Below are positions 57,315 through 60,415 of a DNA stretch of 61,097 nt, piece by piece. The stretch lies in NCBI GenBank assembly GCA_021797825.1, contig JAJZZA010000010.1, positions 1 to 61,097 of the forward strand, in the 5' to 3' direction. The notes below the pieces were generated by a model. The model did not search any database. It saw only the letters and a list, made by a program, of their open reading frames with translations, and had not been told where the DNA came from. A program made the position numbers and the translations under genes. Every line of letters starts with the position of its first letter. Position 1 is the first letter of the stretch. This DNA comes from Bacillota bacterium. Its GTDB lineage: Bacteria; Bacillota; Sulfobacillia; Sulfobacillales; Sulfobacillaceae.

Positions 57315-57947
57315 GTAGAGTTGCCGCCCTATATCTCGGGTTGGAAACGGGCACAAATTACGGGGGTGTTTTCGCAGCAAGATGTCAGCCGTGACACGGC
57401 GGCCTCTGGTCAATGCGATAGGCTGCGCAGACGTCACTCACCCGCCCCCCGACGGTACTCGGCGAGAAGACGGGATCTATTCTTGGGAGGGTAACCCATC
57501 GGGCGTGGTTGCCTGCGTCAGGTCGCGTGCGGGTGCGGCTGGCAACTCAGGCAAGCCACCAGCAGGCGCTCCGCAAACCGCGCCCCCCAATGCCGACGAT
57601 TAAAGCGGGAGGTGAATTCTTCTAAAGGCTAAGTGCAATCCAAGGCTGGAATTTCCGGTTTCTTAGTGCAAACCACCCTCTCCAGTGATCGGGACCCGGG
57701 TTGGAATATGCGATCCGTACTCGGCGGTTTGCGCCCCCCGCGGGTTGGAATGGCCGTTGAAGACGGAGCGGTCAGTGATGGGTCTACTGCTGATCGATCT
57801 CGAAAAAGGCAGGACTCTCTCGTGGTGACCGAATCCGTTCTTAGCGCATGGATACTCGGCCACAATCGATGGATAGGGGGCGGGTACTAATACGACGGCC
57901 CCCTTTAGCGCATCAAGGGCTACTCATCAGAGCACCACCTAGTTCGG

Positions 57948-58262
57948 TTACAAATTCTCAAATAGCACAAATAATACCCTTTCATCCGGGCGAAGTATTG
58001 CTTTGTGCTTGTTCTCTTTTCCTTCCGGAATATATAATCCGTCACCCTCGGTAAACTGAAGGATTGTTCCATTAAAATCCATAGAACAAGAACCATCAAG
58101 CACATATCCGACGTGTCCTTTTATGCACCAATCAGGCTCAACGAAGCCATGAGAAAATTCGACCAATCTAACCCTTTGGTTTCCACTCACATATTCCTTT
58201 GAACGAATTCCAACCCCATTATTGCGCCATTCCTGCTCTGGAAATTCTGTTTGTGCCGCTCC
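57948..58262 (-). pseudogene. Cupin-domain protein with an N-terminal frameshift
   Basis: From ATG 58190 an 80-residue cupin core is readable: RVRLVEFSHGFVEPDWCIKGHVGYVLDGSCSMDF, then GDGLYIPEGKENKHKAIL. The metal-site His and Glu positions are partly present. The expected N-terminal 20 residues (TEFPEQEWRNNGVGIRSKEY) lie just upstream, but in a different frame. They have AAGGAG before them yet no start codon. So either a frameshift broke the gene or the short form is made from ATG 58190. The gene is AT-rich compared with the core genome. Its substrate is unknown. Confidence 0.6.
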
Positions 58263-58312
58263 TTAAAGTCTAATTGTTGACGTAGTTGCCTGTCCCTGAT
58301 TTGCTGGATAAA

Positions 58313-58409
58313 ATGACCACAGAACACATTCCAGGAAAGGGAAACGCCCGGGTTCTGGAATGCTTGCTCAAGGCATTCCCCCGGACGTCCAGAAACACTC
58401 TGTGGTTAT
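58313..58409. repeat. 89-bp strongly structured element with terminal inverted repeats
   Basis: The outer arms ATGACCACAGA (58313-58323) and TCTGTGGTTAT (58399-58409) are inverted with one mismatch. Inside, ACGCCCGGG (58344-58352) pairs with CCCGGACGT (58380-58388), and GGAATGC (58357-58363) pairs with GCATTCC (58373-58379) around a nine-base loop. A further weaker stem joins the outer arms. It may be a MITE or a structured RNA; neither class is recognised. Between 58410 and 58764 nothing else is seen. Confidence 0.55.
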
Positions 58410-58764
58410 TATAACAGCTTATACGCTCGAAGCGGGCGCTGATCCGGTGACTTTTATGTGCGGAGTGCAGAAGTGAGCCATTGCCCCCTCTGTGATGCTG
58501 GTGGCACCCGCCTCAAGGAATTATTGGACCCCATGCAAGTGATTCATTTTTGGCACAACGGACAAATCCGACGGATTCGGAGCGACTCAGCCTGTGGCAA
58601 CGGCAAGCGCTCCTGTTGCTGGGGATGCCATCCCGTCGGTTTACTGCGGTTCCGAGTGGCTGAGGTCCCCGGGGTCATAGGATGCACCGAACTGTCCAAG
58701 GGTGCGAAACATGGGATTTAGAGCACGGCAAGTTTATCCAGGGAATCCGTTTGCCGAAACCCGC

Positions 58765-59100
58765 CTACCGGAGGGTGTCCGGCCACCAATCCGGCAACGC
58801 CTCGGGAGGCGTTGCCCGGCGGTGGTTGCCGCCCTGCCACCGCGGCGTCTCGTGCGCTTGACCCATGAGCACGGCGGTCCAAAACCACTCGACTCGGGGA
58901 GACAGCGTAGCTGCATGAGCGGGATCCGCGAGCCAATCCCGAAGTCTGTCCCATCCGTAGGTCGCAAAGAGCCAGGACCACTCATCTAACGAACCCTCTT
59001 CGAGGACAGTCGGGATAATGAGCGCGGCATGGCGGGTGGCGTCCAACCGCTCCGCATGATAGCGGTGGAATAAACGCTGGACAGCAGGCGGGAGCGTCAT
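58765..59100 (-). CDS. Small antitoxin-like protein paired with AbiEii (DUF6922-like)
   Basis: 111 residues starting MTLPPAVQRLFHRYHAERLD, then RHAALIIPTVLEEGSLDEWSWLFATYGWDRLRDWL and LSPRVEWFWTAVLMG. Small all-helical proteins of this kind are encoded with AbiEii-type nucleotidyltransferases. The start ATG 59100 overlaps the stop of the AbiEii-like gene (ATGA), so it is the second gene of the pair. That order is the reverse of classical AbiEi-AbiEii. A longer frame to 59157 exists but would run into the partner. Confidence 0.65.
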   Translation of the reverse strand: MTLPPAVQRLFHRYHAERLDATRHAALIIPTVLEEGSLDEWSWLFATYGWDRLRDWLADPAHAATLSPRVEWFWTAVLMGQAHETPRWQGGNHRRATPPEALPDWWPDTLR

Positions 59101-59783: not shown

Positions 59784-60264
59784 CCAACGCCCTCCTCGAA
59801 TCTAGTATACCGCATAAGCGCCGCGGGACTCTCGCCGGGATCCGCACGTCGGCCATGCTTGTGCCATCCCCGCTATGACCATGCAATGCTTGGGAACTGA
59901 GGGCGGGGATCGAATCCGGAACCGGTGACTTACCGGGTCACCGCTCTCCTTAGCAAAATTTGGTGGAACCGCGGAGGTTCGAACGCCAACCTTTGGTATG
60001 TCTTTCACGCTCAGGGGCCAGACCTCCGCAAGCAGCGTGGGTCAGGCGCCAGTGTTGGTCCGAGAAGAAGAAGGAACGCGCATATGGCGAAGGGGGCACT
60101 CCCTAATCTGATGCTTGATTGCAGCCTGCACGGAAAAGGGGGAGATTGCGCGCCGCGGCACTGCCCATACCGCAAGATCGATTTAATGCGGGCGGATCGC
60201 ACGTAGCAATGTCCCTCGTGGGGCGCTAGGCATGACCGCGTCATCAATATGGTGCCCAACCGCC
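59784..60264. other. Gene-free stretch with tRNA-like relics
   Basis: On the - strand, two pieces resemble tRNA 3' ends: one near 59960-59995 ending in GCGGTTCCACCA with GTTCGAAC before it, and one near 59895-59920 with GATTCGATCCCCGCC. Neither gives a full cloverleaf. No gene is supported here. Confidence 0.3.
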
Positions 60265-60415
60265 TGCAACGGGCTTTGGTCGGCTAACACAAGATTGTTC
60301 GGGCTCGGACGGAGCCGTCGGGGAGCGGAGAGCGCATACGCCACCGCCATGAACCGAGAAGCCCCACCAGTCCTCGCTGTAAAGCTCGCCGGCTTCAGCC
60401 GTGGGGAGTTGTCAC
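60265..60415 (+). mobile_element. TnpB C-terminal and omega-RNA 3'-end relic (IS200/IS605 family)
   Basis: A short frame ends with NTRLFGLGRSRRGAESAYATAM and NREAPPVL, which resembles the last residues of IS605-type TnpB proteins (M-x-x-E-A-P). It is followed by CCCCAC, then GGCTTCAGCC and GTGGGGAGTTGTCAC (60391-60415). That hairpin with a TCAC end is typical of the IS605 right end and of the 3' part of omega RNA. The rest of tnpB is missing. The stretch 60416-60669 shows no further gene. Confidence 0.6.

What the first reader, a model, noticed from the sequence alone, without database searches (positions are those of the whole stretch)
58313..58409. Compact structured element upstream of a cupin relic
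A nine-base-pair GC-rich helix, a seven-base-pair hairpin and terminal inverted repeats fold nearly all of 89 bp. It looks either like a non-autonomous MITE or like a structured RNA, and I match it to no known class.
Basis: seen in the sequence. Interest (0 to 1): 0.5.

Follow-up and report, generated by a model that had tools for sequence, protein, structure and literature searches.

The report
Antisense RNA gene in transposon end
The folded stretch is the broken-off left end of a jumping-gene family found mainly in Bacillota, and it most likely encodes a small antisense RNA that restrains the jumping genes; in this window only the end survives, stranded inside a broken cupin gene.

Summary
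The fold is real (z -5.4). It lies in a 251-bp remnant (58248-58498) of the left end of a roughly 3-kb transposon (DUF6431 protein, DDE transposase, AAA ATPase; TG...CA ends; 6-bp target duplications at unlike sites) that cuts a cupin gene; it is not a MITE. The same leader frame precedes DUF6431 in 77 of 80 named relatives. The hairpin covaries strongly. Three signs place the functional RNA on the MINUS strand: wobble pairs are G-U on minus (87 cells) far more often than on plus (14); a U-tract follows the hairpin on minus in 64 of 69 sequences and on plus in none; third codon positions spelling an extended -10 on minus are almost frozen as A (56/56 and 55/56). Best reading: a 64-77-nt antisense RNA, fired from inside the first codons and ended by its own terminator hairpin, pairs with the leader of the transposition operon and restrains it, as RNA-OUT does for IS10. 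Transposon end, stem and strand bias are shown; transcription and repression are inferred. No credible Rfam match. The window copy is a relic.

The parts
58248..58498 (+). Remnant of the left end of a DUF6431/DDE/AAA transposon (terminus TGTTTGTGCC..., ends after an 18-residue stretch similar to a DUF6431 protein)
   Evidence: 82% identity over 253 columns to the left end of a relative (L004): similarity starts at 58248 and stops at 58498; DDE and AAA queries gave only weak hits elsewhere in the window (E 6e-4 and 0.003, taken as chance)
58248..58320 (+). Terminal repeat region; in complete elements similar blocks (TGTCC..TTGACGG..ATGACC) recur inverted at the right end
   Evidence: Left and right ends of a complete 3017-bp element side by side, compared by eye
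58286..58314 (+). Inward promoter pIN: TTGCCT, 17 nt, TAAAAT; predicted start near 58321
   Evidence: Consensus scan 9 of 12, 1 found against a mean of 0.1 in shuffles; TTGCCT-17-TATAAT in L129 and L060 and similar in many relatives
58335..58401 (-). Predicted antisense RNA, about 67 nt (starts about 58401, ends in the U-tract)
   Evidence: Model R1 built only from named relatives hits window 58333-58416 on minus, 35.5 bits, E 1.4e-4; predicted length 64-77 nt in 69 sequences, assuming a start 7 nt behind the -10 and 8 nt of U-tract. Ends are inferred, not mapped
58343..58389 (-). Covarying hairpin (10-bp stem continued by a 7-bp stem with a one-sided bulge)
   Evidence: Fold of the minus strand; covariation in relatives
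58334..58343 (-). U-rich tract after the hairpin on minus (TTCCCTTTCC here); on plus an SD-like purine tract
   Evidence: 10 nt after the hairpin hold >=6 T in 64 of 69 sequences on minus and 0 of 69 on plus; the window copy has only 5
58408..58416 (-). Outward promoter pOUT: extended -10 TGTTATAAT, lying in codons 3-5 of the leader frame
   Evidence: Sequence; near-fixed third codon positions in relatives. No convincing -35; the simple scan does not report it
58402..58476 (+). Leader reading frame GTG...TGA, homologous by eye to the N-terminus MVI.S.YEL.E of relatives; its TGA overlaps the next GTG (58473-58475)
   Evidence: Sequence and comparison with relatives
57951..58247 (-). Cupin gene cut by the insertion; frame open to the junction, about 11 N-terminal residues missing
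   Evidence: Translation; DHCW cupin model NF038084, residues 18-86 match positions 29-97, 41.3 bits, below its cut-off of 70

Best explanation
The element is the surviving left end of a transposon with a DUF6431 zinc-ribbon protein, an IS481/TnsB-like DDE transposase and a TniB/ExeA-like AAA ATPase. In intact copies an inward promoter (TTGCCT-17-TATAAT) makes the operon mRNA, and a facing promoter inside the first five codons of the leader frame makes a short antisense RNA across the 5' untranslated leader. The antisense RNA ends at its own terminator hairpin, which is the structure seen here. It pairs with the leader from just upstream of the start codon to the SD-like purine tract, and so keeps transposition proteins low, more strongly as copies multiply. 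Shown: transposon end, gene content, target duplications, conserved covarying stem, minus-strand bias. Inferred: transcription, termination, pairing and repression.
For: Stem: 93.7% of cells paired on minus against 78.4% in shuffles, 168 double-change cells against 52.4, covariation score 0.564 against 0.268 (0 of 500 shuffles reach any of the three); partner strand slid by 1-3 columns gives 36.9-59.5% paired. Strand: 87 G-U cells on minus against 14 on plus (66 rows, 14 pairs); 47 sequences favour minus, 3 plus, 16 equal; among 26 representatives below 70% identity 21, 1 and 4. Minus folds better in 53 of 69, plus in 15, equal 1. U-tract (>=6 T in 10) on minus 64/69, plus 0/69. Leader codon 5 ends in A in 56 of 56 distinct starts and codon 4 in 55 of 56, located by an amino-acid rule; background A in DUF6431 domains 121/514 TCN, 84/394 ACN, 216/893 GTN, 162/735 ATH, but 194/338 TTR. 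Three homologues without an R1 match (L045-L047) have codon 4 = ATC or ATT, so no such -10. More distant DUF6431 loci with other stem sequences again show a hairpin preceded by a purine tract (L043, L044, L048-L051, L055, by eye); L044, L048 and L051 reach E<=0.01 with R1. Complete elements of 3017 and 3005 bp; proteins.
Against: No transcript data. The simple scan found the inward promoter but neither the outward one nor a minus-strand terminator in L129, L060 or the window: pOUT lacks a good -35, and the bulged stem does not fit that scan's rules. The U-tract is interrupted by C in most copies (alignment, by eye), and the window copy has only 5 T in 10. 15 of 69 hairpins fold better on plus. 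No loop motif is common to all (by eye). Of 43 R1 matches in 299 genomes, 10 have no DUF6431 hit beside them. The hairpin plan was not evident by eye upstream of L032, L038, L052 and L056.
Confidence: 0.72

Rival explanations
1. The hairpin works in the sense mRNA leader only (structure around the start of the operon, blocking translation of transcripts that enter from outside, or loading ribosomes at the SD-like tract), and no functional antisense RNA is made.
For: AAAGGA/AAAGGG stands within 14 nt 5' of the hairpin in 60 of 69, while no SD is seen by eye just before the leader start codon. The outer inverted repeat pairs in 91.1% of cells on plus, slightly above shuffles (90.2%; none of 500 reach it; 9 double-change cells against 2.3), and its left arm would be present only in transcripts entering from outside. 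IS10 and IS200 are known for such protection (references seen in a passage of PMC2965389).
Against: In helix 1 variants break pairs on plus (87.1% paired, 9 pairs) but keep them on minus (95.6%, 10 pairs). A sense-only function does not explain the minus U-tract or the frozen third position of codon 5. The outer repeat gains little over shuffles, and the tool warns that relatedness alone can do that.
Confidence: 0.15
2. It is an outward-facing terminator that only stops transcripts from leaving the transposon; any minus-strand RNA is a by-product.
For: The right end of a complete element also carries, by eye, an outward hairpin with a U-tract. The left hairpin is followed by U only in leftward transcripts.
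Against: A pure terminator does not need a frozen extended -10 just behind it, nor its regular place between the inward start and the first codon.
Confidence: 0.1
3. Non-autonomous MITE.
For: A relative of about 0.8 kb with both ends and a 6-bp duplication exists (L025), so shortened derivatives occur in this family.
Against: In the window only the left end is present; the right-end motif was not found beside it. The inverted repeat of the finding is not the transposon terminus.
Confidence: 0.02
4. A guide RNA that selects the transposon's target, as bridge/seekRNA does for IS110/IS1111 elements.
For: Conserved structured RNA next to a transposon end.
Against: Copies with the same or nearly the same RNA in one genome sit at sites without a shared sequence by eye, with duplications such as ACTAGC, CCCCAC, TTTCGG, CCATGG, GTATAC (11 copies in 2 genomes). 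The transposase has rve/Mu-type (DDE) domains.
Confidence: 0.01

Closest known systems
IS10/Tn10 pOUT and RNA-OUT (recalled; PMC5006887 and PMC6601013 seen only as listings)
   Same: Facing promoter near the start of the transposase gene; short stem-loop antisense RNA over the 5' end of the transposase mRNA
   Different: Unrelated transposon type; here the antisense hairpin looks like an intrinsic terminator as well, the promoter lies in codons 3-5, and the first gene is a DUF6431 protein
ISPpu9 Asr9 of Pseudomonas putida (PMC8450116; abstract and introduction read)
   Same: Antisense sRNA complementary to a long structured 5' leader of a transposase mRNA
   Different: ISPpu9 is IS110/IS492 with a DEDD transposase; Asr9 is reported to help expression, so the sign of control here must be tested
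pMV158 antisense RNAII (PMC4485353; abstract read)
   Same: Very short antisense RNA: 5' tail, one hairpin, 3' U-rich stretch; blocks translation of its target
   Different: Plasmid copy-number control; hairpin of 8 bp; no sequence relation was tested
IS200 art200 (PMC12594629; passages read)
   Same: Antisense transcript that pairs with the tnpA mRNA
   Different: IS200 element with a different anatomy
Mobile attenuators upstream of transposases (PMC2965389; passages and one section read)
   Same: Terminator hairpins at the 5' ends of IS elements, including in Firmicutes
   Different: Described as terminators that limit IS expression from outside promoters; the word antisense has 0 occurrences in that main text

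Membership tests
RNA-OUT-type antisense control of transposase (defining features recalled) | Facing promoter opposing the transposase mRNA start | tested here: inconclusive
   Extended -10 TGnTAYAAT nearly frozen at third codon positions, but no good -35 and not reported by the scan
RNA-OUT-type antisense control of transposase (defining features recalled) | Conserved stem-loop in the antisense strand | tested here: met
   Covariation and minus-strand G-U bias
RNA-OUT-type antisense control of transposase (defining features recalled) | Antisense RNA made and repressing in trans | not testable with these tools
   No expression data held
MITE | Two terminal inverted repeats and a target duplication around a short non-coding copy | tested here: not met
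   Only the left end; right-end motif not found beside it
IS110/IS1111 with bridge/seekRNA | DEDD transposase and a target specified by the RNA | tested here: not met
   rve/Mu-type domains; 11 copies at unlike sites, 10 with 6-bp and 1 with 5-bp duplications
IS481 family | NCBIfam NF033577 curated cut-off (224 bits) | tested here: not met
   176 bits for the L129 transposase; related, but not a member by that rule
Tn7-like (TnsB/TnsC) | Mu-type DDE transposase with AAA regulator | tested here: inconclusive
   TnsB among PDB matches at 8.7e-6; AAA_22 and TniB domains; the AAA protein had no PDB match at 0.001; TniQ was not looked for
Any Rfam 15 family | Score at or above gathering threshold | tested here: not met
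   One match below threshold each (window 57900-58800; 13 loci)

The most novel reading that the evidence does not exclude
Solo left ends such as the window's are kept as orphan antisense-RNA genes that act in trans: a broken transposon end turned into an RNA-based silencer of its intact sisters in the same genome, a form of copy-number immunity.
Probability: 0.07. Interest if true: 0.75.

Novelty: new variant of a known kind. Interest (0 to 1): 0.55.

Why it matters
It would add an RNA family for which Rfam gave no credible match, spread mainly across Bacillota, that controls a little-studied multi-gene transposon family (the word DUF6431 is in 1 of 5.39 million held papers). Antisense control is known from only a few insertion sequences (recalled). 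Here the same plan seems to recur in DUF6431 loci whose stems no longer look alike (by eye), so it can be studied by comparison. It also shows a strand-specific way (G-U against C-A counting plus frozen synonymous sites) to find antisense RNAs over coding starts.

Tried and rejected
Rfam search of the window part and of 13 relatives: no credible match. Leader peptide starting at the ATG inside the hairpin of some relatives: not conserved (by eye). Outer inverted repeat as a conserved RNA helix: on plus slightly above shuffles (91.1% against 90.2%, 0 of 500 reach it), on minus near them (85.7% against 85.3%, 27 of 500; 9 double-change cells against 4.2); left undecided. YUNR-type recognition loop: not universal (by eye). 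Guide RNA: rejected on unlike targets. An empty cupin site: the cupin protein matched 1 of 61 genomes, the own one only. A first count of codon 5 was circular because the search pattern demanded CA there; it was replaced by the amino-acid rule (77 of 80 loci; L122, L127 and L132 fail).

Rows dropped before counts: of the 80 named loci, A3 holds 62; identical leaders and L064, L077, L122, L127, L132 and L134 are left out (L064, L077, L122 and L134 do show the hairpin by eye, or 39). From the window's side A3 holds 7 rows (window, L004-L008, L017); L002, L003 and L014 (partial), L009-L013, L015, L016 and L018 are left out. A4 (66 rows) further leaves out L062, L086 and L008. At least 7 of the genomes found are those of model R1's own training rows, judged by equal contig lengths (for instance L031 and L114), so the independent test of R1 is the window and its near relatives. 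R1 is weak there: 4 of 61 genomes at E<=0.01, with stricter filters, missed the own genome.

Full report
Observation. The window sequence holds the helix, the hairpin and the inverted repeat, and the stretch folds far better than shuffles (z -5.38, 0 of 200). The own genome has this copy and two partial ones, each cut by a contig end. Ten of 61 genomes searched, own included, have a match at E<=0.01.

Extent. The copies share more than the fold. Read by eye, they begin at TGTTT..G, continue through TTGCC and a -10 box, the hairpin and GTGGTCATTATAACA, and most run into a reading frame for a zinc-ribbon protein; some (L010, L011, L016) do not. Pfam names that protein DUF6431. In one relative (L022) it is followed by a DDE transposase (rve, Mu-transpos_C) and an AAA ATPase (AAA_22, TniB). 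The window copy matches from 58248 to 58498 and then stops; DDE and AAA queries found only weak hits elsewhere in the window. At 58248 it interrupts a cupin frame that is open up to the junction. So this is a stranded left end.

The complete element. A scan of named genomes with a DUF6431 alignment confirmed 199 relatives, of which the best 80 were kept. Most are Bacillota by title; one contig (L079) is labelled Cloacimonadota. Multi-copy genomes gave whole elements: 3017 bp in Tumebacillus avium and 3005 bp in a Syntrophomonas, three copies being longer by a further insertion (L072, L074, L131). Ends are TG...CA. Of 11 copies, 10 have 6-bp target duplications and one 5 bp, with no common target by eye; one more 6-bp case was read in an unnamed relative (L025). 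Left and right ends share about 75 bp of repeated blocks (by eye), so part of the conserved leader sequence is explained by the ends themselves.

The leader. By an amino-acid rule, 77 of 80 loci have a leader frame like MVI.S.YEL.E upstream of DUF6431. It is homologous by eye to the N-terminus of DUF6431 proteins that have it in frame (L045-L047). In another set of 77 loci (located by the earlier pattern plus L066 and L101) the leader frame is +1 to DUF6431 in 62, -1 in 12 and in frame in 3. Of the 74 shifted loci, 11 have no ATG, GTG or TTG in the DUF6431 frame before the first cysteine; the other 63 have at least one, so a frame change is likely but internal starts are not excluded.

The structure belongs to the minus strand. 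In 66 aligned leaders the hairpin keeps 93.7% of cells paired on minus, with changes on both sides in 14 of 15 pairs. On plus, helix 1 keeps 87.1% against 95.6% on minus. Variants are G-U on minus (87 cells) and seldom G-U on plus (14 cells); in 26 representatives below 70% identity, 21 favour minus, 1 plus, 4 neither. Minus folds better in 53 of 69 and plus in 15. The U-tract follows the hairpin on minus (64 of 69 with at least 6 T in 10) and not on plus (0 of 69). On plus the same tract holds AAAGGA or AAAGGG in 60 of 69, so it may also serve the mRNA.

The promoter for it. Just right of the hairpin, leader codons 3-5 mostly read, on minus, TGnTAYAAT, an extended -10. Codon 5 ends in A in 56 of 56 distinct starts and codon 4 in 55 of 56, against 21-24% A at TCN, ACN, GTN and ATH codons of the DUF6431 domains; TTR, used in 7 of the 56 codon 4s, has 57%. 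An earlier count was circular and is not used. Homologues L045-L047, which gave no R1 match, lack this -10. The simple promoter and terminator scan reports neither the outward promoter nor the terminator, which stands against the reading. With a start 7 nt behind the -10 the antisense RNA would be 64-77 nt, about 67 nt in the window.

How it most likely works. The inward promoter makes the operon mRNA, whose 5' leader is largely the hairpin region. The antisense RNA covers this leader from the base before the start codon to the purine tract. Pairing would block ribosome loading or fix the leader in a closed form, and would act in trans on all copies. These steps are inferred. The opposite sign is possible: Asr9 of ISPpu9 is reported to help expression (PMC8450116 abstract).

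Generality. A model built from 58 named leaders (alignment A5), with no row from the window's side, finds the window on minus at 35.5 bits (E 1.4e-4 in 146 kb; 0.003 in the own genome). In 299 genomes of the phylum it finds 43 places in 22 genomes. Comparing coordinates by hand, 20 lie beside a DUF6431 hit, 10 do not, and 13 are in G267 (10), G345 (2) and G187 (1); of these 13, the G345 and G187 places and C4, C16, C56 and C74 of G267 lie at or near a contig end on the side where DUF6431 would be, and the other six could not be told. Others show by eye the same plan of purine tract, hairpin and start codon (L043, L049, L050, L055); it was not evident in L032, L038, L052 and L056, and L053 and L057 were not examined for it.

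Known or new. The nearest systems are RNA-OUT of IS10 (recalled), Asr9, art200 and the plasmid RNAII. None is in this transposon type. DUF6431 is named in one held paper (listing only). A held paper describes terminator hairpins upstream of transposases as mobile attenuators (PMC2965389). Searches on antisense RNA with transposase or IS terms listed no such element by title or abstract start; each list was read only as shown (searches show 12 of 52 and 10 of 22 papers), and most subscription papers are not held.

Noticed in passing
L059-L138, leader to DUF6431 junction (GTT TTT NGT TAG): The N-terminus of the DUF6431 protein seems encoded in another frame: 62 of 77 loci need +1, 12 need -1, 3 are in frame. 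A candidate programmed frameshift or slippage site in a transposon regulator.
   Followed up: partly
window 60162-60365 (minus): 77% identical to a stretch of an unnamed relative downstream of its element copy (L005); a second shared repeat of unknown kind.
   Followed up: no
L019:2093-5100: Two tyrosine recombinase genes follow a shortened DDE gene of this transposon family, possibly a composite or a neighbouring element.
   Followed up: no
L002:1-949: In the own genome another copy of the left end stands directly behind a gene that looks by eye like an IS110-type transposase.
   Followed up: no
L077: Extra sequence lies between the inward -10 and the hairpin, which I did not see in other copies.
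   Followed up: no
G267 (10 places): Ten copies of the RNA with equal scores in a genome without a DUF6431 hit; at least four lie at a contig end, as an unassembled multi-copy element would.
   Followed up: partly
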